Assembly: GCF_025742995.1 (NCBI RefSeq)
Contig: NZ_JAOVQM010000002.1
Coordinates: 186,001 to 250,000, forward strand
Origin: Paracholeplasma manati
Lineage (GTDB): Bacteria > Bacillota_I > Bacilli_A > Acholeplasmatales > UBA5453
Direction of reading: 5' to 3'
DNA: 64,000 bases
A program made the translations under genes and the position numbers. Shown one piece after another: positions 44,214-60,224 of the stretch. Under the pieces are notes generated by a model, which was not told the DNA's origin, searched no databases, and worked only from the letters and a program-made list of their open reading frames with translations. How positions within the stretch are numbered: the first letter of the stretch is position 1; every line of letters starts with the position of its first letter.

Positions 44214-44220
44214 TATACCC

Positions 44221-44400
44221 ATGGATGATCAAGCTATAGTATTACAAGTCTTAGAAAATGCCGGTGTACCACTCTCACAAAAAGAAATCGAAGCCCAGTC
44301 GGGTTTAGATCCTAAAGTCGTTGATAAAGCGATGAAGGCTCTTAAAAAAGATGAGAAGATTGTCTCTAAAATCCGTTGTAAATGGGAACCAAACCATTAA
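44221..44400 (+). CDS. small winged-helix-like protein
   Basis: A 59-residue protein, MDDQAIVLQVLENAGVPLSQKEIEAQSGLDPKVVDKAMKALKKDEKIVSK followed by a short basic tail. The helix-turn-helix pattern (LSQKEIEAQSGLDPKVVDKAMKALKKDEKIV) followed by a strand is that of a minimal winged helix, as in MarR/DprA-type wings. It may bind DNA or be a small partner of a regulator. ATG 44221 follows AAAGGA with about 10 nt spacing; the longer frame overlaps the previous gene. It shares the transcript of the four-helix membrane protein and ends at a terminator. Confidence 0.72.
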   Translation: MDDQAIVLQVLENAGVPLSQKEIEAQSGLDPKVVDKAMKALKKDEKIVSKIRCKWEPNH

Positions 44401-44404
44401 TATG

Positions 44405-44430
44405 AATATCCCATTTGGGATATTTTTTCT
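44405..44430 (+). terminator. terminator
   Basis: AATATCCC (44405-44412) pairs with GGGATATT (44417-44424), followed by TTTT. The ribosome-binding site of the next gene comes directly after. Confidence 0.85.
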
Positions 44431-44442
44431 AGGAGGAAATGC

Positions 44443-45453: not shown

Positions 45454-45474
45454 TAATCAAGAAAGAGGTACACT

Positions 45475-46476
45475 ATGGAACACATCAGAGGCGTCAATTT
45501 AGGTGGTTGGTTCGTCTTAGAATCTTGGATGAGACCAGCGTTATTCGAAGGATTAACCGGTCCGGATGAAACCCACTTTATGCAAAACCATAAAGATCCC
45601 CATCAAGCACTTGACAACCATTATCAAACCTTCATCACAGAAGCCGATTTCCAGTACCTTAAAGCACACAACATCACACAGGTAAGGCTACCTGTGCCAT
45701 GGTGGTTTTTAGGTACCGATTTGTATCACCGTTCGAAAGAACACATCGATCGTGCGTTTGAATACGCCAATCGTTATGGGATTCAAATACTACTCGATTT
45801 ACATACCGCACCTGGTTGTCAAAATGGCTTTGATAACGGTGGAATCACCGGTGTCATCGATTGGCCAAAAGACAAGAAAAATATCGATCAAACGATTGAA
45901 GTATTGAAATCGTTGGTGAGCCTTTATCATGAAAACAACGCCTTTGTTGGGATCGAAGTTTTAAATGAACCACACAGTTCAATCGATATTGATATCATCT
46001 TAGATTTCTATGAAAGAAGTTACCAAGAGATTCGAAAGATCACTCAAAAGCTTATTGTTTTCCATGACGCCTTTAGACCTAAGTTAGGTGTTTGGAAAAC
46101 CTTCTTCAAAAACAAGGACAATGTCGCTTTTGACTTACACTTATACCACTGTTTTGATGAACGAATCGTCAACGGTGGCGAACTCAATCACCTTAAAGTG
46201 GTGATCGAAGAACGGCACCAAATGATTCAAAACCTCTCTAAGTTTGTCAGAGTCATTGTAGGCGAATGGTCGTTGGGTTTGAGAGAATCCAAGATGGATT
46301 TTAAGGATCCATTTTCCCATGACTTATTTGTCAGACTGTTAGCGGATTTACAACTGTATGTGTATAATCAAGCCTTTGGGTTCTATTTTTGGAACTACAA
46401 AATTGACCGTGAATCCCATTTGAATTGGGACATGAGACGCATGATTGATGCCGATTTATTACCTAAAAACTATTAA
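45475..46476 (+). CDS. glycoside hydrolase family 5 enzyme (beta-glucanase-like)
   Basis: A 333-residue TIM-barrel hydrolase. It starts with RGVNLGGWFVLESWMRP, a mark of the exo-beta-1,3-glucanase side of GH5. Catalytic residues: acid/base E165 in LNEPH and nucleophile E264 in GEWSLG; HLYHCFD and FGFYFWNYK lie in the usual strands. There is no signal peptide, so it acts on imported oligosaccharides or on glycolipids inside the cell. ATG 45475 follows AAGAGGT. It is followed by a DsrE-like gene after 15 nt. Confidence 0.85.
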   Translation: MEHIRGVNLGGWFVLESWMRPALFEGLTGPDETHFMQNHKDPHQALDNHYQTFITEADFQYLKAHNITQVRLPVPWWFLGTDLYHRSKEHIDRAFEYANRYGIQILLDLHTAPGCQNGFDNGGITGVIDWPKDKKNIDQTIEVLKSLVSLYHENNAFVGIEVLNEPHSSIDIDIILDFYERSYQEIRKITQKLIVFHDAFRPKLGVWKTFFKNKDNVAFDLHLYHCFDERIVNGGELNHLKVVIEERHQMIQNLSKFVRVIVGEWSLGLRESKMDFKDPFSHDLFVRLLADLQLYVYNQAFGFYFWNYKIDRESHLNWDMRRMIDADLLPKNY

Positions 46477-46491
46477 ACCGAGGAGAAACCC

Positions 46492-46797
46492 ATGAAAGCA
46501 CTGTTTCATATCGACGAAAGACACAAATGGCCATTATTATCGATGAATATCAAAAACTTATTACAAATGAGCCCAGTGATGAATATCGCTGTGGTCATCA
46601 ATTCAGAAGCGGTTGAACTATTCATTAAATCTACTGTGAAGCTTGAACCTAATGTGAAATACTACTTATGTGAGAACTCTATAAAGACGAGAAATCTCAA
46701 TCCAAACGATGTTTTACCAGGTACTGAAATCGTGAAGAGTGGTGTCTATCAGATTGTCTTATTACAAAATCAAGGTTATGCTTATATAAAACCGTAA
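46492..46797 (+). CDS. DsrE/DsrF-like protein
   Basis: A 101-residue alpha/beta protein. The start KALFHIDERHKWPLLSMNIKNLLQ followed by NIAVVINSEAVELFI and the end VYQIVLLQNQGYAYIKP matches the DsrE/DsrF-like (DUF1791) group, whose members are linked to sulfur-carrier chemistry. The position of the usual active Cys reads YYLCENSIKTRNL, so one Cys is present. ATG 46492 follows GAGGAG. Its stop codon is part of the terminator hairpin. Confidence 0.8.
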   Translation: MKALFHIDERHKWPLLSMNIKNLLQMSPVMNIAVVINSEAVELFIKSTVKLEPNVKYYLCENSIKTRNLNPNDVLPGTEIVKSGVYQIVLLQNQGYAYIKP

Positions 46798-46815
46798 ATT
46801 GATACGGTTTTTTTC
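46788..46815 (+). terminator. terminator overlapping the stop codon
   Basis: AAACCGTA pairs with TACGGTTT (46803-46810) around a six-base loop and runs into a T-tract. A TATAAT at 46827-46832 follows it and can start the next gene. Confidence 0.85.
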
Positions 46816-46857
46816 TTTTCTTAATGTTATAATTGAATTAATGACGAGGTTAATCGA

Positions 46858-47265
46858 ATGAAGAAAATATATATAATTTTATTTTTAATGATCATCACTT
46901 TGAGTGGTTGTCAAAATAACGGTACCATCGTAAGGTATTCAGATGATTTATCCATCAAACAGGATGGCATCATTTATTTGGTGGATAGTTTCTATGAGAA
47001 TGGTTCTAATCTGACTTTTAGAATATCCATTGAGAATACCACCGATGAGTCACAAATCTTAAAACTCGAAGACTTATTCATCACTCGGTTATCCAACGAA
47101 GTAGGATATCCTGTGAATTGTCGTATCTTCGACAATGAAGTCACAGTTTCATCAAAATCGAAACAAAACTTATCGTGTGTGGTTGTATTACCAACATCGA
47201 TTGAAGATGAACACTACAAATTAACATTTAACCAGTTTGTTTTTAACTTGTTTGAGAAGAAATAG
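46858..47265 (+). CDS. small lipoprotein
   Basis: A 135-residue lipoprotein: signal MKKIYIILFLMIITLSGC with lipobox TLSGC. The mature part is beta-rich (IIYLVDSFYENGSNLTFRISIENTTDESQILKLEDLFI ... KSKQNLSCVVVLP) and looks like an immunoglobulin-type fold of the DUF4352/telokin-like kind, which fits a surface domain of unknown role. ATG 46858 follows GAGG. The first gene of the AT-rich island begins only 8 nt after its stop with no terminator between, so transcription probably runs on into the island. Confidence 0.75.
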   Translation: MKKIYIILFLMIITLSGCQNNGTIVRYSDDLSIKQDGIIYLVDSFYENGSNLTFRISIENTTDESQILKLEDLFITRLSNEVGYPVNCRIFDNEVTVSSKSKQNLSCVVVLPTSIEDEHYKLTFNQFVFNLFEKK

Positions 47266-47273
47266 AGGAAAAT

Positions 47274-48140
47274 ATGGATAAAAAAAGAATTTTGGAAATT
47301 ATTGATATTCTGTCACATTCTATAAAAGAAAAGGATAACTACCTTGTTGACGAGTTAAAGGGTCTTATTTTTGATGAAAAACTACCGAAATATTTAACTA
47401 TGATAGATCAAGTTTCTATCGATCTAGACTATGAAAAAGAGTTTTCTTTGTATTTGAAGCAAGAACGCCTAATTAAAGAAGTAAGTGTTGAAAAGTATTA
47501 TGACTCTTTAAATAAAGTGAAAGAAATACTCGAATACAGTTATAACATTACAATACCTTTTAACCTATACACAGTTTCAGATCATAATTGGTTCACAAAC
47601 ATGATCATTGATTTTGAAAGTAATCAAAAGAATATAAACCTAAACTTAAAATGGCATCACATACTTTCTGCAGCATATAATAATTATAAGTATTTCTTGA
47701 AGATAAAAAATCGTACCTTCAAGAAAGTTATGTTGAATTCTAAAACTATTTTTTATTGTGATGTGGCTAACAAAAAGATCTGTAGAAAACCATCAAAATC
47801 AAACTTAAAAAAAGTTGGATCTGATAATAGTCTATATTTTGGAATTAAAGATGAAAGTATAATGTACGACTTGATTAAAAATATCCTTAATGTTGATGAT
47901 AATGAATTTAATCGTAAATTTAAAATGAAAGCATATAACCAGATTATTGATGTAGAAACTAACCTCAATAAACAAAATCAAGTACAAGTTAAAATAATCG
48001 GTGATGGAAAAATGGCTTATATTTTTGACTTATATCAAATTAAACAAATGAATCAGATCAACCCTGATAACATATTTTTTTGTATTGACTTTAAAAATAA
48101 CGAAATTACAGTTATATATGAGAGTGAAATCAATGCATAA
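47274..48140 (+). CDS. unknown protein, first gene of the MORC-Z1 methylation island
   Basis: I do not recognise this 288-residue protein. It is soluble, rich in Lys, Asn and Ile, and has no signal peptide. Residues 1-80 look alpha-helical (ILEIIDILSHSIKEKDNYLVDELKG). The middle holds WHHILSAAYNNYKYFLKIKNRTFKKVM and an isolated Cys pair (FYCDVANKKICRK). The end is beta-rich (QVQVKIIGDGKMAYIFDLYQIKQMNQINPDNIFFCIDFKNNEITVIYE). No nuclease or DNA-binding motif is clear. ATG 47274 follows AGAGGAAA. It overlaps the first methyltransferase gene by 8 nt (ATGCATAA), so it is coupled to it and probably part of the same system, perhaps a specificity or control subunit. Confidence 0.65.
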   Translation: MDKKRILEIIDILSHSIKEKDNYLVDELKGLIFDEKLPKYLTMIDQVSIDLDYEKEFSLYLKQERLIKEVSVEKYYDSLNKVKEILEYSYNITIPFNLYTVSDHNWFTNMIIDFESNQKNINLNLKWHHILSAAYNNYKYFLKIKNRTFKKVMLNSKTIFYCDVANKKICRKPSKSNLKKVGSDNSLYFGIKDESIMYDLIKNILNVDDNEFNRKFKMKAYNQIIDVETNLNKQNQVQVKIIGDGKMAYIFDLYQIKQMNQINPDNIFFCIDFKNNEITVIYESEINA

Positions 48141-49218
48141 ACTAAAACTAGCAACTGTTTTCAGTGGAATTGGGTCAGTAGAACACGCATTAATAAAACA
48201 AAGCATACCATTTGAAACTGTTTTCGCTTGTGACTCAGGCGAAAGATATTTAAATCAAACTGAAAGTGAGATAAAAGACGATATCCATCTTAATCAAATT
48301 AGAGACGTCAAAAAGCATATTAATAACCTGTATAACAAAGAAAGAAAACCTAATTATGTACGTGAAACATATTTTGCCAACTATGACATTGATGATAGTA
48401 GATGGTACGATGACATTCGATTCATTGATGGTAACAAATACATAAATCAAGTTGATTTATTTGTAGGTGGGAGCCCTTGTCAAAGTTTCTCAATTATGGG
48501 AAAAAGAGCCGGTTTAGATGATACAAGAGGTACACTTTTCTATCATTTCGCACGTCTTGTAAATGAAATCAAACCCGAAGTGTTCATTTTTGAGAATGTA
48601 CCAGGTATGCTAACGCATGATTATGGGAACACTTGGGATGTAATTAAAGGAGTATTTAAGCAACTGGACTACAATATTAAGTTTGAAGTTATGGATGCGA
48701 TAGATTTCGGTATTCCTCAAAGGAGAAAAAGACTATTTGTTGTGGGATTTAGAGATAAATCAATAGAATTCGAGTTTCCGAAAGGTCAACAAAATTTTGA
48801 ACCAATAACAACATTTTTGGAAGAAAACAATGAAATTGAATCCCATTTCTATTTAGGAAAAAAAGGATTTGAATTTGTAACAAATCCAAAATATAAAAAT
48901 AGAGCTAAAATTCTAGGTGATACTATTAGAACACAAAAAGCAAATCAACAGTTTAATTGGAATGGTGATTTTGTTTTTGTACCTACTGCATCAATTACGA
49001 ATGACCAAGTTAAAAGAAGAGCATATGAAGGTATTTACAATAATCAACATGGATACATTAGACAACTCACCAATAGAGAATGTTTGAACCTTATGGGATA
49101 CAGCTCAAATTTTAAAATTGTCGTTCCCAAAATGCAAGCATATAGACAAGCTGGTAATTCTATTGTAGTCAATGTAATGGAAGCATTAATTAATGAAATT
49201 ATGAAAGTGATGAAATAA
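48133..49218 (+). CDS. DNA (cytosine-5)-methyltransferase 1
   Basis: A 361-residue m5C methyltransferase, moving a methyl group from SAM to C5 of cytosine in a specific DNA site. Motif I FSGIGSVEHAL, motif IV GGSPCQSFS with the catalytic C116, motif VI ENVPG, motif VIII QRRKRLFVVG and motif X QAGNSIVVNV are all present in the standard order; the target recognition part lies between VIII and IX (about 230-310). Between motifs I and IV there is an unusual insert of about 70 residues that it shares with the next protein. ATG 48133 overlaps the previous stop by 8 nt; a longer frame from 48085 lies in the previous gene. Confidence 0.93.
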   Translation: MHKLKLATVFSGIGSVEHALIKQSIPFETVFACDSGERYLNQTESEIKDDIHLNQIRDVKKHINNLYNKERKPNYVRETYFANYDIDDSRWYDDIRFIDGNKYINQVDLFVGGSPCQSFSIMGKRAGLDDTRGTLFYHFARLVNEIKPEVFIFENVPGMLTHDYGNTWDVIKGVFKQLDYNIKFEVMDAIDFGIPQRRKRLFVVGFRDKSIEFEFPKGQQNFEPITTFLEENNEIESHFYLGKKGFEFVTNPKYKNRAKILGDTIRTQKANQQFNWNGDFVFVPTASITNDQVKRRAYEGIYNNQHGYIRQLTNRECLNLMGYSSNFKIVVPKMQAYRQAGNSIVVNVMEALINEIMKVMK

Positions 49219-50324
49219 TGAAAAAGATTAAAGTTGCAACAGTATTTAGTGGTATTGGTGCATTTGAATTTGCACTTAAACGATTGAAAATCCCAAATGA
49301 AATCATATTTGCTTGCGATAATGGTGGAAGAATCATTGATTATGATTATGATAAGGAAATACAAATTGTTAAATCACTTAAAAATCCGTTAGAAAAGAAA
49401 AAGTATGTAGACGAATTATATAAATCTAATACTAGGAGACATAACTTCGTGAAAGACTCGTTTTTAGCTAACTACTCCATGGATGAAAATAAATTTTACG
49501 AAGATATACGTTTACTGGATGGTAATGATTTTACTGATCAGGTCGACATTCTAGTTGGAGGTAGTCCATGTCAAAGTTTTTCCTCAGTAGGATATAAAAA
49601 AGGACTGGAAGATGCACGTGGGACACTGTTTTTCGACTTTATAAGACTCATTAATGAGATAAAACCTCGCATTTTTATTTATGAAAATGTAAGAGGTATA
49701 AAAAACCACGATCACGGAAATACATGGGAAATAATGTCTGGTTTATTTAAAGACACAGGGTATAAAATAACTTCTAAATTACTTAATGCCAAAGATTTTG
49801 GTGTTCCACAAAATAGGGCAAGAATGTTTGTAATAGGAATTAAGGATCAAAATGATTTCAGTCTAGATAATATTAATATAGATTTGAAATATAAAATGCA
49901 AGATTTTCTAATAGATCACTGCTCTTTCGGGAATTTTACATATGATAAATCCGGAGAGTTAGTTATTCATAATAACCCAGGTGAAATAGGATCCCGTTAT
50001 TATTTATCGGAGAAAATAAAAAAATATGTTTTAAAATCAGGTACGAAAAGTTTTTATCAAAAACCTGTGATTAATAAAGAAATCGCTAGAACAATTTTAT
50101 CAACTATGGGAAATTGTCATAGAGCTGGTATAGATAATTATGTAGATCACGATGGCCAAATTCGAATGTTATCGGAACGAGAAGCTCTAAGATTAATGGG
50201 TTTTACTGATGATTTTCGAGTCGTTGTATCAGTTGCTCAAATGTACAAACAAGCGGGAAATTCGATAGTGGTTGATGTACTAATCGGTATTGTTAGAGAA
50301 TTATTTAATCAAAATATTCTATAG
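49218..50324 (+). CDS. DNA (cytosine-5)-methyltransferase 2
   Basis: A 368-residue paralogue of the preceding enzyme. Motifs: I FSGIGAFEFAL, IV GGSPCQSFSSVG with C118, VI ENVRG, VIII QNRARMFVIG and X QAGNSIVVDV. It has the same insert between motifs I and IV (down to similar LLDGNDFTDQVD / FIDGNKYINQVD), but the recognition region differs (FLIDHCSFGNFTYDKSGELVIHNNPG). This pattern fits an old tandem duplication, with each enzyme reading a different strand or site, as in systems with asymmetric recognition sequences. Start and previous stop overlap by one base (TAATG). The Z1 gene follows after 20 nt. Confidence 0.93.
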   Translation: MKKIKVATVFSGIGAFEFALKRLKIPNEIIFACDNGGRIIDYDYDKEIQIVKSLKNPLEKKKYVDELYKSNTRRHNFVKDSFLANYSMDENKFYEDIRLLDGNDFTDQVDILVGGSPCQSFSSVGYKKGLEDARGTLFFDFIRLINEIKPRIFIYENVRGIKNHDHGNTWEIMSGLFKDTGYKITSKLLNAKDFGVPQNRARMFVIGIKDQNDFSLDNINIDLKYKMQDFLIDHCSFGNFTYDKSGELVIHNNPGEIGSRYYLSEKIKKYVLKSGTKSFYQKPVINKEIARTILSTMGNCHRAGIDNYVDHDGQIRMLSEREALRLMGFTDDFRVVVSVAQMYKQAGNSIVVDVLIGIVRELFNQNIL

Positions 50325-50344
50325 AATTTTTGGGAGAGAAAAAT

Positions 50345-53134
50345 ATGGATATTAGCAATATAAAGTATGCTAAAATTCGAGATTGGATTAAACAATCACG
50401 AAAAAGAGGTTTAAGCTGGGATAAAATAGAATTGCTTAATCAATCTTCAATTGAAGAATTTTTATCTAAACTAAATGTTAATAAAATTGAACAATATTGG
50501 GACATTGATATTGAAACATGGCATCTAATCGTTAATGACGAGAAAATTGCGGAAATGGAAAGCTTAACAGCTGAGATCATTGGAGTCCCAACCATAGTAG
50601 CAGAAGATCCGCAAAATTACTTAGATTTACCTTTATCAAATGATGAAAATAGTCTATGGAATTTGTATTCAAACAAGCTTAGAGAAAAAAAGTTTAAAGA
50701 AAGAACAATTCGAAATATTGAAGAATCATCTAGAAGTATTTTAGTACAATTAAAGGATAAAACCGAAGAAGATAGACCAGTAAAAGGTTTAGTAGTAGGT
50801 AATGTTCAATCAGGTAAAACTGCTAACATGGCTGCATTGATCGCTATGGCAGCTGATATTGGATTTAACTTTTTTGTTGTTTTATCAGGCACGATTGATA
50901 AACTTAGAGAGCAAACACAGGATAGATTGTATGGGGATTTGGATCTCAATAGTAATCTTCAAATTCAACTTTTAACAAATTTATCGAGTAAGACAGCATC
51001 GCCTTTCCGTTTACAAGACCTAAAGTTTGAAAAAAAATCAAAAAAGAGATATCTATATGTTTGTCTAAAAAACCAAGCAGTTTTAAAAAACCTAAATCAA
51101 TGGATAAATAAGGATCAATTAAGTAAAGAAGGCATAAAATTGCTAGTTATTGATGATGAAGCTGATCAGGCAGGTATTAATACATTAGATATTGATAGTG
51201 ATGAAAGAACGAAAATCAATAAATTGATTATTGACCTTGTAGCAAATCGTAACTATAAAAGTGAAAAGCAACCTAAAAGCTTTGGTGCAGTAAACTATAT
51301 TGGTTATACGGCAACTCCATATGCAAATATATTGAATGAAGCCAAACCAGAATCATTGTATCCAAGTAGCTTTATCGCTACTCTAGCCGTATCAGACGAG
51401 TACTTCGGACCCCAACAAATTTTTGGACTCGACGATTCGAATTTGTTAGGACTCTCAATTGTTAATAAAATCGATATAAATGACGTTAAATTAATTAAAA
51501 AGGATGATCCAAATTTCGATAGTGAATTACCACCGTCATTTAAAGAGTCAGTTATGTGGTTTTATTGCTCAGTTGCTGCATTGAGATTATCAGGCTATAA
51601 AAAACCTTTAAGTATGTTGATTCATACGAGTCAAAAACAAAAGGATCATAGTGATATTTATCAAAGACTTAAGGAGTGGATAAAAAAAGAATCAAATAGA
51701 ATTGATGATTTTATTTTTAAAATGAAGAAAGTTTGGGACCAACAAACTAAACAATTTAATAAATCGTATCTACGACTTCAATATCCAAAATATGGAGTTT
51801 TAGACAAAGAAATTAATGATTATCCTAATTTTGATGACTTTAAAATTGAGTTGAAATCTTTAATAGATCAACAACCATGTAATATTGAGTTGGATTATGA
51901 CAATGATAAGTTAGTTTATACTACTGGAATGCATTTATGCATCGACAACTGTAAATATAACGGTGTTGATTTTAATGGAAGACATTTTAGACTAGCTTAC
52001 CCTGACCCCAAGAATTGTAGTATAACCGCACCAGCATTCATTGTAATTGGTGGTTCGACTTTATCTCGTGGATTAACACTCGAAGGATTAGTTAGCACTT
52101 ATTTTTTAAGAACAACCAAACAAGCAGACACACTAATGCAAATGGGTAGATGGTTTGGATATAGGCATAATTATGAGCTTTATCCTAGAGTATGGTTGAC
52201 TGATAATGCAATCATACAATTCAAATATCTTTCAAACTTGGATTTTAAACTTAGAAACGAACTTTCATTTATGGAAAAGATGGGATTGTCACCACTAGAC
52301 TATGCACCGAGAGTGATATTTGATCCTGATTTAGCAATTATTCAAATTACTTCAAAAAATCGCATGCAAGGAGTTGAAGAAGTTGATGCAGATTTTTCAG
52401 GATATCAGGCTCAAACTACTGTGTTTTATAAGGATATACGTACATTAGAAAAAAACATTCAATCAACAGAATCCTTTATAAAAACTTTAGGAAATCCTAT
52501 TTTGAATAATCCAGTTAATATCCATGCAAAAGATGCATATATATGGAAAAATGTAAATCATACAAAAGTTTTTGAATACCTTTCTAATATGAAATACCCT
52601 GACCATATAAAACTAATGAAAGGGTACGAAGGCATTAAAGAATGGTATATAGAGGCCAAAAAACAAGATTTAGTTCAAAATTGGAATGTAGCAATCTCTG
52701 GTATTCAATCAGGTAAAGAAACATACATTTCAGGGTTAAAAGTCAAAAAAGTTAATCGTTCAAAAGTTAAGAATAGTAATCCTGATGAAATATCAATAGG
52801 AGTTTTAAGGGATAGTAAGGATATACTTCTTGATATCGATTTAGATCAAAATCCTGATCTCATCAACGTCTTTAAAGATGATTCAATTAGTCCTTTGGTG
52901 ATCAGAGAAAAATCATGTGTATCAAAGATGCCACAGTTATTAATATATGTAATTGATAGAGATTCCAAGGCGATTAAAAAGGATTCACAAGTAAGATTGG
53001 ATCTAAACTCTTCCGTAGATGTGATTGGTATATTTTTGTTGTTACCAAGAATAAGTTCATCCAACAAAGATCAGTACGTTAGAGTGAAAATAATACCAAA
53101 CATTGATTTTGAAGGAGTAGATGAAGATGCTTAA
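50345..53134 (+). CDS. Z1-domain superfamily II helicase/ATPase
   Basis: A 929-residue protein of the Z1 family. Walker A GNVQSGKT (152-159), Walker B VIDDEAD (270-274), GYTATPYANILNEA, then VIGGSTLSRGLTLEGL and the Z1 hallmark MGRWFGYR starting at 600. The N-terminal 130 residues and the C-terminal 250 are family-specific. Z1 proteins are associated with MORC-type ATPases, restriction nucleases and DNA methyltransferases in predicted restriction systems; they are thought to move along or remodel DNA. ATG 50345 follows GGGAGAG; a TTG at 50330 lies in the same site. It overlaps the MORC-like gene by 8 nt. Confidence 0.9.
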   Translation: MDISNIKYAKIRDWIKQSRKRGLSWDKIELLNQSSIEEFLSKLNVNKIEQYWDIDIETWHLIVNDEKIAEMESLTAEIIGVPTIVAEDPQNYLDLPLSNDENSLWNLYSNKLREKKFKERTIRNIEESSRSILVQLKDKTEEDRPVKGLVVGNVQSGKTANMAALIAMAADIGFNFFVVLSGTIDKLREQTQDRLYGDLDLNSNLQIQLLTNLSSKTASPFRLQDLKFEKKSKKRYLYVCLKNQAVLKNLNQWINKDQLSKEGIKLLVIDDEADQAGINTLDIDSDERTKINKLIIDLVANRNYKSEKQPKSFGAVNYIGYTATPYANILNEAKPESLYPSSFIATLAVSDEYFGPQQIFGLDDSNLLGLSIVNKIDINDVKLIKKDDPNFDSELPPSFKESVMWFYCSVAALRLSGYKKPLSMLIHTSQKQKDHSDIYQRLKEWIKKESNRIDDFIFKMKKVWDQQTKQFNKSYLRLQYPKYGVLDKEINDYPNFDDFKIELKSLIDQQPCNIELDYDNDKLVYTTGMHLCIDNCKYNGVDFNGRHFRLAYPDPKNCSITAPAFIVIGGSTLSRGLTLEGLVSTYFLRTTKQADTLMQMGRWFGYRHNYELYPRVWLTDNAIIQFKYLSNLDFKLRNELSFMEKMGLSPLDYAPRVIFDPDLAIIQITSKNRMQGVEEVDADFSGYQAQTTVFYKDIRTLEKNIQSTESFIKTLGNPILNNPVNIHAKDAYIWKNVNHTKVFEYLSNMKYPDHIKLMKGYEGIKEWYIEAKKQDLVQNWNVAISGIQSGKETYISGLKVKKVNRSKVKNSNPDEISIGVLRDSKDILLDIDLDQNPDLINVFKDDSISPLVIREKSCVSKMPQLLIYVIDRDSKAIKKDSQVRLDLNSSVDVIGIFLLLPRISSSNKDQYVRVKIIPNIDFEGVDEDA

Positions 53135-55154
53135 TATTGAAATATTAAAACAAAAAAAGATGCAAATGTCAGGAAGTAAAATCTTAGACTCAATACAAAA
53201 CAAAACAATGCAAAATATAGATTTGTTTGTTAGAGAAGCTGTTCAAAACAGCATAGATGCATTTGATACTAGACAAAAGTCTTCAGAGATTAATATAGAT
53301 ATAAATTACAAGTCTTTTGATTCTTATGCGTTATGCAATAAACTTGAGATGATTGGTGAAGTAATATCAAAAAGAAATGACCTGGTCGATAAATACTTGT
53401 CATTCAGCGATAAGAATTGTATAGGTCTTGTAGGAGACCTAGATCCTGAAGTGGTTAGCAAATTTGCAAACAAACAAGATCAAAACCTATATAACTTAGT
53501 ATATGATGTCATGTACAAGAAAAGTGAATCAAACTCTGGAGGTTCATGGGGTATTGGTAAAACCTCGTTTTATAGATTAGGTATTGGTATAATTTTTTAT
53601 TATTCTAGAATTAAGATAAATAATGAATATCAATCAAGACTGGTCGGTGTATTAATTGAAAACGAACTTAGAAGTAATAGTATTATAAAGACCAGTGAGT
53701 ATAGTGGGATAGCTTTTTTTGGAAAACAAAAAAATGATTATACAATACCTGTTACAGATGATCATGAAATCCTTAGTTTCTTAAGTGTTTTTGATTTGAA
53801 ACCATATGAAGGAAATGAAACAGGTACAATTTTAATTATACCGTATGTTGATGAAATGGTTTTTCTGCCAAATTGTCAAGGAAATTTCGGAAGAAATACT
53901 ATTTTTCCTTGGGAAAGAGATTTGAGGAAGGCTTTTGAACTATCCTTCCAAAAATGGTATTTTCCTCGCTTCAACAACAAATCGGTTAAACCTTATATTT
54001 CACTCACGTATAATGGGAATAAATTTGATAGTTTTAATACATTCGAAGTTTTTAAACATTTACAATTAATGTATAATTATAAATTCTCCGACCATGAACT
54101 TTATCAAGTTAAAGATATCGAAATAAAAGACTTAGGTATAGTTGGAAGATTCATATTTGGAGTTTTTGATGATGATCAATTAAAAATCAATCCACCTCAT
54201 AATCAACATTCACCATTTCAATTCTTAGGAATAGTACATGATGATGAGGATGCGATTGACAGTAACGAGCCAATCATCATGTTTACGAGAAAACCAGGTA
54301 TGATAATTGACTACAAAAAATCTTTTCCATGGGTCTCGCCCAAACTATCAACACCACCAAATCAGTATTTCATAGGTATTTTCATACTTGAAACGAATGA
54401 TGAGTTGGAAGCATACTTCAGAGCAAGTGAAAAAGCAGATCATATGGATTGGGGCGATATCGGTAGCTTCACTAATAAGAAAATGGTCGATTTACAACCA
54501 TTCAAATTAATAACTTCTCGTTTACGTAAAATTCAAAAAGCTCAACAAAAAAATCTAGATGATCCGATTTCAGAAGATAATTTGAAGGAATTAGGGAAAA
54601 TCTTGGCAAATATGTTATTACCAAATGAAGACTATGGCGATTTACCAACACTAAAAACCCCACCAAATGGAAGAGGTGGTGGGACTGTTATCGGCAAATC
54701 AAGAATACACAAATTGAGCATAGAAGATATTTCATATGAAAAGTACGTAACAATGTTAGTTAGGCTTCAATGGAAATCAACGATAAATAGAATTGAGATT
54801 TTTTTTAAGATTTTATCTGGTTCTAAGGCCATTTCTATCGATGAGTGGAATCAAATCGGTCTTGATTCTCCTTTCAAGATAGAAAAAATCGGAGTTTTTA
54901 TTTTACAAATTGATAAGAATAAAAACATCAAGAACAACACATTCTTCTTTAACGAGAATCAAAGTATTACAGCATTTGAGGACTTTACTATTGAGAAGAT
55001 TATATCAGAAAATGGAAGTACCATTGGATATAGATTCAATAACATTAAGCATATCGAAATTGATATTAGAATTGCTTTATATTTGACCGTTATTGACAAA
55101 TCAATAAATATTGATTTAGTCCACACAATTGATCGAGGTAACAGCGATGAGTAA
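53127..55154 (+). CDS. MORC/MutL-like GHKL ATPase
   Basis: A 675-residue protein of the bacterial MORC-like group. The N-terminal GHKL (Bergerat) ATPase fold shows the N-box E37-AVQ-N41 (REAVQNSIDAFD), a degenerate G1 region (GLVGDLDPEVV) and the glycine-rich lid GGSWGIGKTS (138-147). The rest of about 480 residues contains beta-rich S5-like and family-specific parts. Such ATPases dimerise on ATP binding and are thought to clamp DNA. In this gene order they are known from predicted restriction systems with Z1 helicases. ATG 53127 has AAGGAG 9 nt upstream; ATG 53121 would be too close. It overlaps both neighbours by 8 nt. Confidence 0.85.
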   Translation: MLNIEILKQKKMQMSGSKILDSIQNKTMQNIDLFVREAVQNSIDAFDTRQKSSEINIDINYKSFDSYALCNKLEMIGEVISKRNDLVDKYLSFSDKNCIGLVGDLDPEVVSKFANKQDQNLYNLVYDVMYKKSESNSGGSWGIGKTSFYRLGIGIIFYYSRIKINNEYQSRLVGVLIENELRSNSIIKTSEYSGIAFFGKQKNDYTIPVTDDHEILSFLSVFDLKPYEGNETGTILIIPYVDEMVFLPNCQGNFGRNTIFPWERDLRKAFELSFQKWYFPRFNNKSVKPYISLTYNGNKFDSFNTFEVFKHLQLMYNYKFSDHELYQVKDIEIKDLGIVGRFIFGVFDDDQLKINPPHNQHSPFQFLGIVHDDEDAIDSNEPIIMFTRKPGMIIDYKKSFPWVSPKLSTPPNQYFIGIFILETNDELEAYFRASEKADHMDWGDIGSFTNKKMVDLQPFKLITSRLRKIQKAQQKNLDDPISEDNLKELGKILANMLLPNEDYGDLPTLKTPPNGRGGGTVIGKSRIHKLSIEDISYEKYVTMLVRLQWKSTINRIEIFFKILSGSKAISIDEWNQIGLDSPFKIEKIGVFILQIDKNKNIKNNTFFFNENQSITAFEDFTIEKIISENGSTIGYRFNNIKHIEIDIRIALYLTVIDKSINIDLVHTIDRGNSDE

Positions 55155-56073
55155 TATTTCCTTATATCCTGCATTGAATTCAATTTTAGTCAATGAAATT
55201 GTTAAAACTAAGTATGACTTTTATTTCGAAGATAAGTATTCTAAAAAGTACCCATTACGACAAGAACAATTAGATAAGAAATCAATTAAAGTCACTGATC
55301 CAAACGAAGACTGGGTTTATCGTGATAACGGACTATATATTAAGATTAGTACAAAAATTCTATCATGTGATAGGATGTTCTTAAATCCTGAAGTCGCGTG
55401 TATTGATGCACAAGTTGGATATGGTATAGAGTGGTATTCTCAAGAGTCTAGACAAAGAGGTTTTGTTGTAATTGGTGAATGTAATAAAGATACTAAAGAC
55501 AACAATAAACAAGTCGAATTGATGCTTAATTACAAGGATTTTAAAGATAATGTAAACTTTGATATTGTGTTTTTTATTGATACTCCTGGTAGTGCAGATG
55601 ATAAACATAGGCATCTAGCTAATGAACCGGGAATTATTATCGGCTCAAGTAGACTATTTTCCTTGATTCTTGAAGGTTCTGGATCAATTTTCCCTGTTAT
55701 GAGTATCGCGGATGCACTAAAACCATTATGGGAAGTCAAAGTTGATATAGAATCTGTTGAAGAAGACCAATTCAACAAAGATTACGTTTGTATCTACTTA
55801 AACAAGGAACATAAAGATTATAAATATATAGATAAGGGTAGTAAAGAGTTTAACATTAGTTTTTTGAAGGATGTCCTATCGTCTGCAATAACTCAAATTA
55901 TTTCTACATTGATTGAAGGTTGTGAGGATCATAGTATTGATTCTAATAGTGAAGAAGGAACGATCATGAGGATATTGTATTATTTCCAAGAAAAACATAA
56001 ATTTGATTATAGTTCAATTACAAATTTATCAAATTCTATAAAACTATATTTTGATAAGGAGTTCAAATTTTAA
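55147..56073 (+). CDS. unknown protein of the MORC-Z1 island
   Basis: I do not recognise this 308-residue soluble protein. It has an alternating alpha/beta pattern: SLYPALNSILVNEIVKTKYDFYFEDKYSKK, a region RQRGFVVIGECNKDTKDNNKQVELMLNYKDF, FDIVFFIDTPGSADDKHRHLANEPGIIIGSSRLFSLIL, and a helical end FLKDVLSSAITQIISTLIEGC. It could be a structural subunit or a second, divergent nuclease, as such systems often carry two; no PD-(D/E)XK or other active site is certain. ATG 55147 follows CGAGGT and overlaps the previous stop by 8 nt (ATGAGTAA), which argues that the two are made in fixed ratio. Confidence 0.7.
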   Translation: MSNISLYPALNSILVNEIVKTKYDFYFEDKYSKKYPLRQEQLDKKSIKVTDPNEDWVYRDNGLYIKISTKILSCDRMFLNPEVACIDAQVGYGIEWYSQESRQRGFVVIGECNKDTKDNNKQVELMLNYKDFKDNVNFDIVFFIDTPGSADDKHRHLANEPGIIIGSSRLFSLILEGSGSIFPVMSIADALKPLWEVKVDIESVEEDQFNKDYVCIYLNKEHKDYKYIDKGSKEFNISFLKDVLSSAITQIISTLIEGCEDHSIDSNSEEGTIMRILYYFQEKHKFDYSSITNLSNSIKLYFDKEFKF

Positions 56074-56074
56074 A

Positions 56075-56788
56075 ATGACTAAATTTTTAAGCAAATTAGA
56101 AGCTGAAAAACACTATATTCATTATTTTGAAACTAAAAATATAGGTGATTTGAGTGATGAATATAAGCAAATTAGAATTGAAATTATGAAAATTTTTGAA
56201 AAATACAAAAACCTTAAGGGTTATGAGTTTGACTATCGTTTTGCAGTAGATTTCTATATAATTATGAATGAAATAAAAACGTTTAAACCATACCTAACAA
56301 ACTATGATTATTGGAGGTATATTTGTTTAGATGTTGCCCCTGAAGTCATAGATTTTAGACATCCTATTGATGATCCCTATAAAGAATCAACAAAGGAGTA
56401 CTACTATAAAAAAAATTTGAGAATGTATTTTCCAACACTTTATTGGTATGTTCATTTATCATGGCAAAATACAAGAGAAGAAACGTTAAAAGCACTTGAA
56501 GACAATACGACTGATACGATTTTAAACTTGGTTGAAAGACCTGGGAAAAAAGGAATATCAATTGATTTATTCCGAAAGATAATGTACTACTATTATCACG
56601 TAGATAAGAAGGATAGAAAGGTCATAGATTCAATTGATAATAAGAGCTATTCATTGTTTAGAAGAGTAATGATATTACATTTGTCAAAGTTAAATACAAT
56701 TATTCCAAATAAATATAGAGAGGGTATAGATGGTTATGTTAGGATGTTGTTTGCTAGTTTTGGCATAACTTTTTCGGAGGATTTATAA
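56075..56788 (+). CDS. unknown helical protein of the MORC-Z1 island
   Basis: A 237-residue, mostly alpha-helical soluble protein rich in Tyr and Lys. Notable segments: NYDYWRYICLDVAPEVIDFRHPIDDP, MYFPTLYWYVHLSWQNTREETLKALE and the end IDGYVRMLFASFGITF. The aromatic WRY...R pattern recalls proteins annotated as DUF6339, which occur in similar neighbourhoods, but I am not sure of this. ATG 56075 is chosen; AAGGAG lies 13 nt upstream, which is long. TTG 56051 would start inside the previous gene. It is followed by the nuclease gene after 2 nt. Confidence 0.65.
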   Translation: MTKFLSKLEAEKHYIHYFETKNIGDLSDEYKQIRIEIMKIFEKYKNLKGYEFDYRFAVDFYIIMNEIKTFKPYLTNYDYWRYICLDVAPEVIDFRHPIDDPYKESTKEYYYKKNLRMYFPTLYWYVHLSWQNTREETLKALEDNTTDTILNLVERPGKKGISIDLFRKIMYYYYHVDKKDRKVIDSIDNKSYSLFRRVMILHLSKLNTIIPNKYREGIDGYVRMLFASFGITFSEDL

Positions 56789-56790
56789 TA

Positions 56791-57693
56791 ATGAATTTGT
56801 TAGACGAAATCAAACTTTACTATGCTTCCCTTGATAAAAATCGAGTAAGAGTGCTTAAGTCAATTAATCCATTTATTACATACTTGTATATGGATAGCTC
56901 AAGCTATGCTGTTGTTATCCCAGTAGATGAAAACTATCCTTTATATTTCGATGAATTTTCTGGATTTATCATACAAACTATTGAGATGTTAATAGAGAAT
57001 AAAACAACTCGAGTTTTAATGCTTAAATCAAAATCACTTAAAAATTTGGATCAATTTGTAATTATTGCCAATAATTTTAGCGATCCGGGATTGAATGGTA
57101 TTTTAAGACAAAGTTTACTAAATAATCCATTAGAGTGGTCAAATAACTGGAAACAATTTTTTGGTAATCAATATATAAATAAAGAATCGTATGACATATT
57201 TGGTGAACTAATAATCTATGATTACCTGTATGGAATAGACAAAACAGTAAAATGGACTGCATTAGATAGAGGCACCCATGATTTTGAGTCTATCGGTTTC
57301 AGTTATGAAGTTAAAACAACTACAAATAAATACGAGTCAATCGTAACAATCAGCAGTCAAAACCAACTACATAGTCATGTGCCAATAAAGCTATTCTATG
57401 TCAAAGTAGAGAAAAATCCAAACGGAATTTGCATAGACGAAGCATTAGATTCATTAAAGGAAATGGGAATCGATGTTGACATAATAAATACTTACCTTGA
57501 AAAAAATAACCTTCAAAAGGGCAAGATTGAACGCAAAGATAAGTATGTAATACTCGAAAAAAGAGAGTATTTAATTGATACTTCATTCCCACAAATATTT
57601 CCTGAAGAGTTTGAATCTTTCAAACATAGAAATAGGATACTCAAACTCACTTATACTATTGATTTATCAGGCATAGAATATCAATCCTTTTAA
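56791..57693 (+). CDS. PD-(D/E)XK nuclease of DUF4420 type
   Basis: A 300-residue protein that ends the island. The nuclease core is visible as D164 (RGTHDFESIG) followed by the E173-V-K175 of SYEVKTTT, i.e. a PD-(D/E)XK site, with IVTISSQNQL next, whose Gln often helps hold the metal. The N-terminal 110 residues (YAVVIPVDENYPLYFDEFSGF) match the DUF4420 layout. It is the likely DNA-cutting subunit of the system, cleaving sites not protected by the two methyltransferases. ATG 56791 follows GGAGGAT with a long spacing of about 11 nt. A strong terminator follows. Confidence 0.82.
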   Translation: MNLLDEIKLYYASLDKNRVRVLKSINPFITYLYMDSSSYAVVIPVDENYPLYFDEFSGFIIQTIEMLIENKTTRVLMLKSKSLKNLDQFVIIANNFSDPGLNGILRQSLLNNPLEWSNNWKQFFGNQYINKESYDIFGELIIYDYLYGIDKTVKWTALDRGTHDFESIGFSYEVKTTTNKYESIVTISSQNQLHSHVPIKLFYVKVEKNPNGICIDEALDSLKEMGIDVDIINTYLEKNNLQKGKIERKDKYVILEKREYLIDTSFPQIFPEEFESFKHRNRILKLTYTIDLSGIEYQSF

Positions 57694-57715
57694 CATATGT
57701 TTTTTATTTGATCTG

Positions 57716-57742
57716 AAAAGAAGCCAATCAGGCTTCTTTTTC
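57716..57742 (+). terminator. terminator of the island operon
   Basis: AAAAGAAGCC pairs perfectly with GGCTTCTTTT around AATCA, followed by T residues. It marks the right end of the island transcript. Confidence 0.9.
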
Positions 57743-57779
57743 AATTAAATATAAAAAAATTCACTTGATTAGATAGTGG

Positions 57780-57827
57780 TTATCAAAAACATATAACTAT
57801 GTTATAATACCAATGTAAACGCTTTTA
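57780..57827 (+). promoter_or_regulatory. promoter with a cre-like site and a spacer palindrome
   Basis: TTATCA (57780-57785), 17-nt spacer, TATAAT (57803-57808). The dyad AACATA-TAAC-TATGTT (57788-57803) lies in the spacer. TGTAAACGCTTTTA (57814-57827) matches the CcpA site consensus TGWAANCGNTNWCA with one mismatch and covers the expected start of transcription. Repression of the operon by CcpA is likely. Confidence 0.7.
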
Positions 57828-57847
57828 TTTCGAAGGGAGAATTTTAC

Positions 57848-58930
57848 ATGAGTGATTTTAAAGTATTCGAGTACATGGAAAAACACAAGTACGAACAGGT
57901 AGTCTATTTCTATGATAGGACTACAGGCTTAAAGGGTATTACAGTGATTCATAATACCACATTGGGGCCAGCCCTTGGTGGCACTAGAATCTGGAATTAT
58001 GAATCAGAAGACGCAGCAGTCATGGACTGCTTAAGACTCGCTAGAGGGATGACCTATAAGGCAGCAGCTGCAGGGTTGAACCTAGGCGGTGGTAAGACCG
58101 TATTAATTGGAGACGCAACCAAAGTCAAGAGCGAAGCGTATTTCAGAGCTTTAGGTCGATATGTTCAAGCCTTAAATGGTCGATATATCACCGCTGAAGA
58201 CGTCAACACCAGCACGAAAGACATGAGCTATGTGCATATGGAAACCGATCATGTTGTTGGCCTTGAAGGTAAATCAGGGAACCCATCCCCAGTCACAGCT
58301 TTAGGTGCATTATATGGTATTAAGGCTTCACTCAAATACCGTTTTGGTAATGAAGACATTTCTAAGTACACTTTCGCAGTTCAAGGTGCAGGACAAACAG
58401 GTTATTATCTCATCAACCATTTAGTAGAATTGGGTGCTAAGAAAGTTTATTTCTCAGAAATCAACCCTAAGTACATTGAAAGAATGAAAAACGAACATCC
58501 AGAAGTGGAATTCGTGAACCCAGATCAAATCTATAGCATGGATGTAGACGTATTCTCTCCATGTGCATTAGGTGGCGTACTCAACAATCAAACTATCCCA
58601 CAAATCAAAGCGAAAATCATTGCAGGTACAGCCAATAACGTATTATTAGATGAAGATATCCATGGACCAATGATCAAAGACAGAGGTATTTTATACGCAC
58701 CTGACTTTGTGATCAATGCCGGTGGTTTAATCAACGTTTATGTAGAATTGATGAATTGGCCTCAAGAAAAAGCACTTGCGGATGTTAAATTGATTTATGA
58801 TCGTCTATTGGAAATCTTTGAAATTTCTAAACAACAAGACATCCATACCCAATTGGCAGCCAAAGTGTTTGCGAAAAACAGAATTGAAACCATTAAAAAC
58901 TTACACGATAACTATATACCCAAAAGATAA
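57848..58930 (+). CDS. Leu/Val/Phe dehydrogenase family protein
   Basis: A 360-residue NAD-dependent amino acid dehydrogenase that reversibly deaminates branched-chain amino acids to 2-oxo acids and ammonia. Seen: LGPALGGTRIWNY, the catalytic Lys in ARGMTYKAAAAGLNLGGGKTVL, the second Lys region GGGKTV, DVNTS, and the NAD-binding QGAGQTGYYLI. These match leucine dehydrogenase rather than glutamate dehydrogenase. ATG 57848 follows GAAGGGAG. It heads a five-gene operon with a 2-oxoacid:ferredoxin oxidoreductase, which would take the 2-oxo acids on to acyl-CoA, giving reduced ferredoxin. Confidence 0.9.
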   Translation: MSDFKVFEYMEKHKYEQVVYFYDRTTGLKGITVIHNTTLGPALGGTRIWNYESEDAAVMDCLRLARGMTYKAAAAGLNLGGGKTVLIGDATKVKSEAYFRALGRYVQALNGRYITAEDVNTSTKDMSYVHMETDHVVGLEGKSGNPSPVTALGALYGIKASLKYRFGNEDISKYTFAVQGAGQTGYYLINHLVELGAKKVYFSEINPKYIERMKNEHPEVEFVNPDQIYSMDVDVFSPCALGGVLNNQTIPQIKAKIIAGTANNVLLDEDIHGPMIKDRGILYAPDFVINAGGLINVYVELMNWPQEKALADVKLIYDRLLEIFEISKQQDIHTQLAAKVFAKNRIETIKNLHDNYIPKR

Positions 58931-58942
58931 GGAGTGATTCTA

Positions 58943-59164
58943 TTGGCTAAGTATCAACTGGATTTTAACAACGATGCTTGTAAAGGCTGTGAGCTATGTG
59001 TCAATAGCTGTCCAGTTAAAATCTTGGGTATGTCGAATACCCGAATGAATGCCTCAGGTTACGCACTCGTGGATGTCTTAGACATCGACAAATGCATCGG
59101 CTGCACGTTTTGTGCAGTCATCTGTCCGGACTCTGTCATCAAGGTGGTAAAGCACGATGCCTAA
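58943..59164 (+). CDS. 2-oxoacid:ferredoxin oxidoreductase, ferredoxin (delta) subunit
   Basis: A 73-residue protein with two CxxCxxCxxxC clusters (CKGCELCVNSCP and CIGCTFCAVICP), each binding a 4Fe-4S cluster. It passes electrons from the thiamine centre to external ferredoxin. The start TTG 58943 is chosen because AAGGAG lies 8 nt upstream; GTG 58934 overlaps that site. It overlaps the alpha subunit gene by 8 nt (ATGCCTAA). Confidence 0.92.
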   Translation: MAKYQLDFNNDACKGCELCVNSCPVKILGMSNTRMNASGYALVDVLDIDKCIGCTFCAVICPDSVIKVVKHDA

Positions 59165-60224
59165 AAAACTCATTAAGGGTAATGAAGCGATTGCTTTATC
59201 CGCGATTAGTGCAGGGGTAGATGCTTATTTTGGGTATCCAATTACCCCACAAAACGAAGTGCCTGAATATTTATCAAAATACATGCCTGAACATGGTAAA
59301 GTCTTTGTTCAAGCAGAATCAGAAGTTGCTGCCATCAACATGGTTTATGGTGCAGCTGGCGCAGGTAAACGTGTCATGACGTCATCTTCATCGGTTGGGA
59401 TTGCTTTAAAACAAGAAGGCATGTCCTATATTGCTGGTGCAGAACTACCGTGCTTGATTGTATCAGTCATGCGTGGTGGTCCTGGTTTAGGTGGTATTCA
59501 ACCGTCTCAAGCCGATTACTACCAAGCTACCCGTGGTGGCGGTAATGGGGATTATCATACCGTGGTTATCGCACCAGAATCGATTCAAGAAACTGTCGAT
59601 TATATCAAAGAAGGCTTTGATATCGCCGATATTTATCGAAACCCAGTCATGATATTGATCGATGGTCTCATCGGTCAAATGATGGAAGCGGTCGATATGG
59701 ATAAAGAAGTACCCAAAAGAAAGCTCCCTGAAAAATCATGGGCAACAATTGGTACAGAACATCATCCAGGTAGAAACATTGTCAATTCGTTATATTTAGA
59801 CGCACCAAGATTAGAAGAACACAATTTAAACTTAAAAGCGAAGTATGATGCCATCAGACAAAACGAAGTGAAAGTCGAAATGTTTAATATGGAGAATCCT
59901 GACTATGTAATAGTAGCTTATGGATCGGTTGCGAGAATTGCGAGAAGCTCGATTGAAATGCTCAAGGAAGTGGGTATTAATGTCGGAATGATTCGTCCAA
60001 TTACCGTTTGGCCATTTCCTAAAAAAGCATTTGACCAAATTCCTGAGTCCTGCAAAGGTATTTTAGTCACTGAAATGTCTTTAGGACAAATGCTAGATGA
60101 CGTTGAAATCGCGAATAAAGGAAGACATGAGATTGCCTTTTATGGGCGTACTGGCGGGATGGTTCCGGATCCAACTGAAATCAGAGATGCCATTATCAAC
60201 TTTAAGAAATGGGTGATATCATGA
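59157..60224 (+). CDS. 2-oxoacid:ferredoxin oxidoreductase, alpha subunit
   Basis: A 355-residue subunit of the VorB/KorA type. Seen: KGNEAIALSAISAGVDAYFGYPITPQNEVPEYL at the start, QAESEVAAINMVYGAAGAGKRVMTSSSSVGI, the SVMRGGPGLGG loop, and the C-terminal transketolase-like part VAYGSVARIARSSIEMLKEVG. The subunit sequence and the presence of separate gamma and delta chains fit 2-oxoisovalerate or 2-oxoglutarate oxidoreductases; the preceding dehydrogenase gene favours branched-chain 2-oxo acids. Start and stop overlap both neighbours. Confidence 0.92.
   Translation: MPKKLIKGNEAIALSAISAGVDAYFGYPITPQNEVPEYLSKYMPEHGKVFVQAESEVAAINMVYGAAGAGKRVMTSSSSVGIALKQEGMSYIAGAELPCLIVSVMRGGPGLGGIQPSQADYYQATRGGGNGDYHTVVIAPESIQETVDYIKEGFDIADIYRNPVMILIDGLIGQMMEAVDMDKEVPKRKLPEKSWATIGTEHHPGRNIVNSLYLDAPRLEEHNLNLKAKYDAIRQNEVKVEMFNMENPDYVIVAYGSVARIARSSIEMLKEVGINVGMIRPITVWPFPKKAFDQIPESCKGILVTEMSLGQMLDDVEIANKGRHEIAFYGRTGGMVPDPTEIRDAIINFKKWVIS

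What the first reader, a model, noticed from the sequence alone, without database searches (positions are those of the whole stretch)
47274..57693. Eight-gene MORC-Z1-nuclease island with two m5C methyltransferases
Seen: one coupled operon with an unknown gene, two cytosine methyltransferases, a Z1 helicase, a MORC-like GHKL ATPase, two unknown genes and a DUF4420-type PD-(D/E)XK protein, AT-rich against both flanks, ended by a strong terminator. Known: MORC-like ATPases, Z1 proteins, REase-fold proteins and methyltransferases have been grouped by comparative genomics as a predicted restriction system. Inference: it is a multi-subunit restriction/anti-phage system in which the MORC ATPase and Z1 translocase bring the nuclease to unmethylated DNA. 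The extra first gene, the doubled methyltransferase and two orphan subunits set this version apart.
Basis: partly seen in the sequence, partly recalled or inferred. Interest (0 to 1): 0.88.

Follow-up and report, generated by a model that had tools for sequence, protein, structure and literature searches.

The report
Paired-methyltransferase Z1–paraMORC2 restriction operon
This is a horizontally acquired eight-gene bacterial immune operon that very probably marks the cell's own DNA with two partner methyltransferases and cuts unmarked invading DNA with an ATP-driven motor plus a nuclease; relatives exist in dozens of genomes, and its middle three genes turn out to be a portable cassette attached to many different restriction systems.

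Summary
In detail: eight coupled ORFs at 47274-57693, 30% GC against 38.5% around, closed by a terminator-like hairpin. In congeners the same chromosomal slot carries other restriction-type cargo.

Interpretation partly corrected. The GHKL ATPase is paraMORC2 (ExxxH signature 34/34; MORC motif 0/37). It is not the MZA system: far below the MzaC and MzaD cut-offs, no AIPR, different gene order. The 'orphan' genes are not orphans. g6 and g7 (g7 = divergent DUF6339) belong to a five-gene core Z1-paraMORC2-g6-g7-DUF4420, conserved in 22 other fetched loci. The GHKL-g6-g7 triad also recurs without Z1 or DUF4420, in the same order, near FokI-, HpaII-, NgoFVII- and HNH-type nucleases; it is homologous to PADLOC's uncharacterised candidate PDC-M33A/B/C.

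The two methyltransferases are an old matched pair (two supported clades, same six loci), as expected if the target is asymmetric and each enzyme protects one strand. One relative replaces DUF4420 by a PLD-B3 nuclease of CglI/NgoAVII type, which supports DUF4420 as the cutter. g1 is rare, found only with the paired subtype.

Verdict: a new variant of the paraMORC restriction operons predicted in 2008. Mechanism inferred; no biochemistry.

The parts
47274..48140 (+). g1, 288 aa, unknown family; optional subunit of the paired-methyltransferase subtype
   Evidence: No match in PADLOC or NCBIfam and no significant match in Pfam. 36% identical over 231 residues to L027 in the same g1-M1-M2-Z1 order; C-terminal half in L029. 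In 386 genomes of the class the only strong matches are the window, G1073 and G1068; the two foreign matches have the lengths and contig positions expected of L027 and L029. None on plasmids or phages.
48133..49218 (+). M1, cytosine-5 DNA methyltransferase, 361 aa
   Evidence: PF00145 1.9e-67; motifs FSGIG, PCQ, ENV, QRRKR, GNS present; clade M1, 6 loci, support 99/95
49218..50324 (+). M2, cytosine-5 DNA methyltransferase, 368 aa
   Evidence: PF00145 1.6e-65; motifs intact; clade M2, the same 6 loci, support 99/99
50345..53134 (+). DEAD-Z1 superfamily II helicase-like motor, 929 aa (MzaC-related, below the family cut-off)
   Evidence: PF10593 6.2e-51; NF041933 MzaC 272.6 bits vs cut-off 1500; Walker A GNVQSGKT, DDEAD and DTLMQMGRWFG nearly invariant in about 30 sequences
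53127..55154 (+). paraMORC2 GHKL ATPase, 675 aa
   Evidence: N-box QNS..DA, D97xxxxG, GGSWGxGK and E437xxxH441 conserved (E and H 34/34; numbering from the ORF start at 53121); MORC motif GhXhhpXXRhl found in 0 of 37; PADLOC PDC-M33A 1.1e-6
55147..56073 (+). g6, 308 aa, beta-rich protein with C-terminal helices; PDC-M33B-like position
   Evidence: 29-sequence family; no significant Pfam, PADLOC or PDB sequence match; AF2 pLDDT 89; weak Ig-like sandwich similarity to PDE-delta/RhoGDI, TM at most 0.28 of query; homologous to the middle gene of Z1-free triads, hhalign P 2.8e-5 vs control 0.35
56075..56788 (+). g7, 237 aa, all-helical, divergent DUF6339; PDC-M33C-like
   Evidence: 12 of 31 relatives hit PF19866, best 5.6e-42; 5 of 31 hit PDC-M33C PDLC04586, best 2.1e-37; AF2 pLDDT 92; no PDB fold match
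56791..57693 (+). DUF4420 PD-(D/E)XK nuclease, 300 aa (MzaD-related, below the family cut-off)
   Evidence: PF14390 3.5e-16; E139, D164, E173 28/28 and K175 27/28 conserved; NF041934 MzaD 27.5 bits vs cut-off 420; slot taken by a PLD-B3 restriction nuclease in L038
57715..57741 (+). terminator-like hairpin at the downstream island boundary
   Evidence: -18.2 kcal/mol for 57706-57756, z -5.33; homology with congeners resumes at 57733-57749
47266..57733 (.). whole inserted island in an exchangeable slot between a small 135-aa ORF with a lipoprotein-like N-terminus and a Glu/Leu/Phe/Val dehydrogenase gene
   Evidence: Homology to three congeners stops at 46838-47275 and resumes at 57733-57785; the slot holds PLD-helicase-DUF3427 + NUDIX (G997, G153) or MutH-type nuclease + m5C methyltransferase (G996)

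Best explanation
An ATP-dependent, multi-subunit restriction-modification system. M1 and M2 each methylate a cytosine on one strand of the same, probably asymmetric, target, so self DNA is protected on both strands. On unmethylated DNA a complex holding the DUF4420 PD-(D/E)XK nuclease binds and cuts, and the DEAD-Z1 subunit hydrolyses ATP to move on duplex DNA and lets complexes communicate, as in CglI. The paraMORC2-g6-g7 cassette is an ATP-gated clamp: the GHKL dimer closes on DNA, with g6 and g7 as adaptors that couple the clamp to motor and nuclease, and so licenses cleavage. Shown here: gene content, intact motifs, the conserved core, the paired-methyltransferase clades, the nuclease-slot replacement, the portable triad and the exchangeable chromosomal slot. 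Inferred: restriction as the function, an asymmetric site, the CglI-like motor role, the clamp role, and the adaptor roles of g6 and g7. g1 is inferred to be a rare accessory, role unknown.
For: Five-gene core in the same order in 22 other fetched loci, including Bacteroidota and a Methanobrevibacter MAG. Motor, ATPase, nuclease and methyltransferase motifs intact. L038 replaces DUF4420 by an RE_NgoFVII PLD+B3 nuclease in the same slot, the nuclease class that works with a Z1 ATPase in CglI/NgoAVII (PMC4267653; PMC5737866). M1 and M2 fall in separate supported clades across the same six loci. Pairwise distances of the five core proteins correlate (r 0.55-0.78, none of 2000 permutations as high); the Z1-linked GHKLs form one clade with SH-aLRT 100 in a quick tree. 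Exchangeable slot with other restriction-type cargo. In the paraMORC3-type Shedu protein VcSduA, mutations that abolish catalytic activity abolish phage defence (PMC12137116).
Against: No restriction or methylation data exist for this locus. The triad occurs without Z1/DUF4420 (13 loci), so it need not be mechanistically tied to them. In L015 the M1/M2 pair sits with a core of another lineage, so methyltransferase type does not strictly track DUF4420 as the specificity determinant. L011 keeps the rest without DUF4420. g1 is not shared by all paired loci.
Confidence: 0.6

Rival explanations
1. Two systems in one operon: a Z1-DUF4420-m5C restriction system, with an independent embedded defence (paraMORC2-g6-g7, PDC-M33-like) that acts by its own mechanism, for example abortive infection triggered when restriction is inhibited.
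For: The triad is found near unrelated nucleases and methyltransferases, including D12-type m6A methylases, and near a reverse transcriptase. PADLOC lists PDC-M33A/B/C as a candidate system of its own. Embedding of one defence inside another is documented (PMC12255303).
Against: In the Z1 lineage the triad lies between Z1 and the nuclease slot with overlapping genes, and its GHKLs form one clade. g6 and g7 show no recognisable toxin or nuclease domain. 10 of 13 Z1-free triad loci have an m5C or m6A methyltransferase in the fetched stretch, so even the free triad looks restriction-linked.
Confidence: 0.25
2. A divergent MZA system working as MZA does.
For: The best named families for the Z1 and DUF4420 proteins are MzaC and MzaD.
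Against: Scores far below the curated cut-offs (272.6 vs 1500; 27.5 vs 420 bits). No AIPR among the eight proteins. MZA-type loci on plasmids have ATPase(~490 aa)-Z1-PD-(D/E)XK-AIPR order with no g6/g7 detected.
Confidence: 0.08
3. Regulatory or DNA-maintenance locus (orphan methylation, repair) rather than defence.
For: GHKL ATPases and RE-fold nucleases also work in mismatch repair; Vsr genes lie near several relatives.
Against: Sporadic distribution, low GC, insertion in a slot that carries restriction cargo in congeners, swap with a restriction nuclease, intact nuclease motif.
Confidence: 0.05

Closest known systems
paraMORC restriction operons predicted by Iyer, Abhiman and Aravind 2008 (PMC2292703)
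   Same: GHKL+S5 ATPase with the paraMORC2 ExxxH motif, SFII helicase with DThhQXuRhFG motif, RE-fold nuclease with E-D-ExK motif, cytosine methyltransferase
   Different: M1/M2 pair, the g6-DUF6339 pair as invariant core, and g1; the 2008 text that I read names none of these (its Figure 2 was not readable here)
MZA system (NCBIfam/PADLOC Mza models; Gao et al. 2020 from memory)
   Same: Z1 and DUF4420 proteins are homologous to MzaC and MzaD
   Different: No AIPR, different ATPase and gene order, g6/g7 present, scores far below cut-offs
CglI / NgoAVII ATP-dependent restriction systems (PMC4267653, PMC5737866)
   Same: DEAD-Z1 motor plus separate nuclease plus m5C methyltransferase; CglI has an asymmetric site; relative L038 carries the same PLD-B3 nuclease type
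   Different: The window's nuclease is DUF4420, there are two methyltransferases, and a GHKL cassette is added
PADLOC candidate PDC-M33 (M33A, M33B, M33C)
   Same: GHKL, ~290-aa and DUF6339-type proteins in the same order; GHKL hits M33A, relatives of g7 hit M33C
   Different: Window g6 and g7 do not hit the models directly; here the triad is built into a Z1-DUF4420 operon
Shedu/paraMORC3 VcSduA (PMC12137116)
   Same: GHKL ATPase coupled to a nuclease in phage restriction
   Different: Single fused protein with DUF4263, no motor, no methyltransferase

Membership tests
paraMORC2 restriction operon (Iyer 2008) | ExxxH motif in C-terminal part of S5 domain | tested here: met
   E437 34/34, H441 34/34
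paraMORC2 restriction operon (Iyer 2008) | SFII helicase with DThhQXuRhFG | tested here: met
   DTLMQMGRWFG, nearly invariant
paraMORC2 restriction operon (Iyer 2008) | RE-fold nuclease with E-D-ExK | tested here: met
   E139, D164, E173, K175; DUF4420 3.5e-16
paraMORC2 restriction operon (Iyer 2008) | DNA methyltransferase in operon | tested here: met
   Two PF00145 genes
MORC proper | GhXhhpXXRhl motif in S5 domain | tested here: not met
   0 of 37 sequences by regular expression
MZA system | MzaC and MzaD above curated cut-offs | tested here: not met
   272.6 vs 1500 and 27.5 vs 420 bits
MZA system | AIPR protein MzaE | tested here: not met
   No AIPR match in the eight proteins
CglI-type restriction system | DEAD-Z1 motor and m5C methyltransferase | tested here: met
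CglI-type restriction system | PLD+B3 R-protein | tested here: not met
   DUF4420 instead in the window; present in relative L038
CglI-type restriction system | NTP-dependent site-specific cleavage | not testable with these tools
   needs biochemistry
PDC-M33 (PADLOC candidate) | GHKL protein matches PDC-M33A | tested here: met
   1.1e-6, 25.7 bits, best stretch residues 31-210 only
PDC-M33 (PADLOC candidate) | M33B and M33C proteins in order after M33A | tested here: inconclusive
   Window g6 and g7 no direct hit; 5/31 g7 relatives hit M33C; hhalign of g6 and g7 families to Z1-free triad families P 2.8e-5 and 9.5e-16
Two-methyltransferase (asymmetric-site) restriction systems | Two distinct methyltransferases kept together | tested here: met
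   Clades M1 and M2 over the same six loci
Two-methyltransferase (asymmetric-site) restriction systems | Non-palindromic target, one strand per enzyme | not testable with these tools
   needs methylation calls

The most novel reading that the evidence does not exclude
The GHKL-g6-DUF6339 triad is a transferable module that upgrades otherwise unrelated restriction systems (DUF4420, PLD-B3, HpaII, FokI-type, HNH; m5C or m6A marks) by a common ATP-gated DNA-clamp step; in this lineage it became an obligate part of a Z1-motor enzyme with a two-strand m5C code.
Probability: 0.3. Interest if true: 0.8.

Novelty: new variant of a known kind. Interest (0 to 1): 0.52.

Why it matters
paraMORC ATPases were proposed in 2008 as relatives of eukaryotic MORC chromatin proteins working in restriction systems. 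This family gives a compact conserved complex (Z1, paraMORC2, g6, g7, DUF4420) with natural nuclease swaps, so the role of the GHKL clamp and of two unknown protein families can be tested genetically. It also gives context to an uncharacterised PADLOC candidate (PDC-M33).

Tried and rejected
MZA membership (features not met). MORC proper (motif absent). Recent duplication of the methyltransferases (separate clades). A McrBC swap in L025/L028: only L025 has an AAA/MrcB_N gene downstream, while the L028 gene in that place reads as something else, so it was dropped. Homology of g1 to the small ORFs in L013/L024/L015 or to the 329-aa ORF of L008-type loci: hhalign not significant (few sequences, low power). 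Viral carriage: no relatives of GHKL or g7 in IMG/VR by these scans. PDB sequence searches for GHKL, Z1, g6 and g7 gave no relative. No Rfam element in 44000-60000. No paper in the held library mentions DUF6339; none found for PDC-M33, whose probable source preprint is not held. First comparison of g6 with only three triad proteins was not significant; ten proteins gave P 2.8e-5.
Full report
OBSERVATION. The eight ORFs are present at the stated coordinates, on one strand, with overlaps of 1-8 bp or gaps of 1-20 bp at every junction. The island has 30.0% GC against 38.5% in the rest of the window and ends in a hairpin at 57715-57741 (z -5.3). Its start is 8 bp after the stop of a conserved small gene, so a promoter of its own would have to lie inside that gene; read-through from upstream is my inference.

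FAMILIES. Pfam finds two m5C methyltransferases, Z1 and DUF4420, and nothing convincing for g1, GHKL, g6 and g7 taken singly. NCBIfam and PADLOC place Z1 and DUF4420 next to MzaC and MzaD but, in NCBIfam, far under the curated cut-offs. The fifth protein has the GHKL motifs and the ExxxH signature that Iyer et al. give for paraMORC2 (34/34 sequences), while their MORC motif is absent from all 37.

SYNTENY. A scan of 84,980 species genomes with the GHKL alignment gave 34 loci. Profile annotation shows the core Z1-GHKL-g6-g7-DUF4420 in this order in 22 of them plus the window; several others are cut by contig ends. One or two m5C methyltransferases lie before, after or inside the core. The first phylum search found GHKL relatives in only 3 of 392 genomes, the window's own included, so the system is sporadic. 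Core protein distances correlate (r 0.55-0.78).

NUCLEASE SLOT. In Sporosarcina locus L038 the DUF4420 position, between g7 and the methyltransferase, holds an RE_NgoFVII PLD+B3 protein. R-proteins of that class work with a DEAD-Z1 ATPase in CglI and NgoAVII: ATP hydrolysis is needed for cleavage at an asymmetric site (PMC4267653; PMC5737866). This is the best evidence here that DUF4420 is the cutter and Z1 the motor.

THE TRIAD. g7 is a divergent DUF6339 (12 of 31 relatives hit it). Searching 989 genomes with g7 alone gave 17 loci in 16 genomes, and in all of them g7 follows a 270-330 aa gene that follows a GHKL gene; in L054 the GHKL was assigned by position. Nine of these loci lack Z1 and DUF4420. 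Profile comparison confirms homology of the three positions: GHKL 1.5e-38, g7 9.5e-16, g6 2.8e-5 against controls of 0.35-0.53. Nearby genes include FokI-type, HpaII, NgoFVII and HNH nucleases, D12 methylases and a reverse transcriptase. PADLOC names proteins of these free triads PDC-M33A, B and C. So g6 and g7 are not orphans but parts of a portable cassette; the Z1-linked GHKLs form one clade (quick tree, SH-aLRT 100). Models of g6 (beta-rich, weak Ig-like similarity) and g7 (all helical, no match) give no enzyme hint.

PAIRED METHYLTRANSFERASES. The tandem enzymes of the window, L013, L015, L024, L027 and L029 fall in two separate clades (99/95 and 99/99). They are therefore an old co-inherited pair. 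Restriction systems with two m5C enzymes typically recognise asymmetric sites, one enzyme per strand (general knowledge, HgaI as example); the site was not determined. Five of the six also group in the Z1 tree, L015 does not, so the pair can move between cores.

G1. It occurs only with paired methyltransferases: L027 in the same order, L029 as a C-terminal half at the other end of the operon. In 386 genomes of the class no other strong match appears.

SLOT. In three congeners the flanking genes are conserved and the slot holds a PLD-helicase-DUF3427 plus NUDIX pair (two genomes) or a MutH-type nuclease with an m5C methyltransferase. In C. diphtheriae an island with Z1, DUF4420 and Dcm-like genes likewise replaces a PLD-helicase (pfam11907) and MutT pair (PMC5379612).

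CONCLUSION. A new variant of a predicted class of ATP-dependent restriction systems, with the mechanism inferred by analogy to CglI and GHKL clamps. The main rival, an independent defence embedded in a restriction operon, remains open at about one in four.

Noticed in passing
window 47266-57749; L086, L087, L088: Chromosomal slot exchanged between congeners: PLD-helicase-DUF3427 + NUDIX (G997, G153, the latter with an added NERD protein) or MutH-type nuclease + m5C methyltransferase (G996).
   Followed up: yes
L066 (G494:C16:1-19000): Two copies of the cassette side by side: GHKL-g6-g7-DUF4420 next to Z1-GHKL-g6-g7-MT-DUF4420.
   Followed up: partly
L013:6752-7258, L024:6600-7127, L015:8167-8673: Three other paired-methyltransferase loci have a 168-175 aa ORF of unknown family near the pair or Z1 (L013/L024 39% identical); not detectably related to g1.
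   Followed up: partly
L008:9125-10114, L011:14912-15901, L012:15700-16689, L023:15586-16578: A conserved 329-330 aa unknown protein follows a single M1-like methyltransferase in four loci; an Mrr-type nuclease follows it in L012.
   Followed up: partly
L025:9716-15065 and L028:9716-15095: Bacteroidota loci keep GHKL-g6-g7-m5C methyltransferase but lack Z1 and DUF4420; a 79-aa ORF precedes the GHKL gene in both.
   Followed up: partly
L070:4923-10332: A triad with a reverse transcriptase gene upstream and an enlarged g7 (471 aa).
   Followed up: no
L011:13002-14915: Core without DUF4420: the methyltransferase follows g7 directly, so a nuclease is missing or elsewhere.
   Followed up: no
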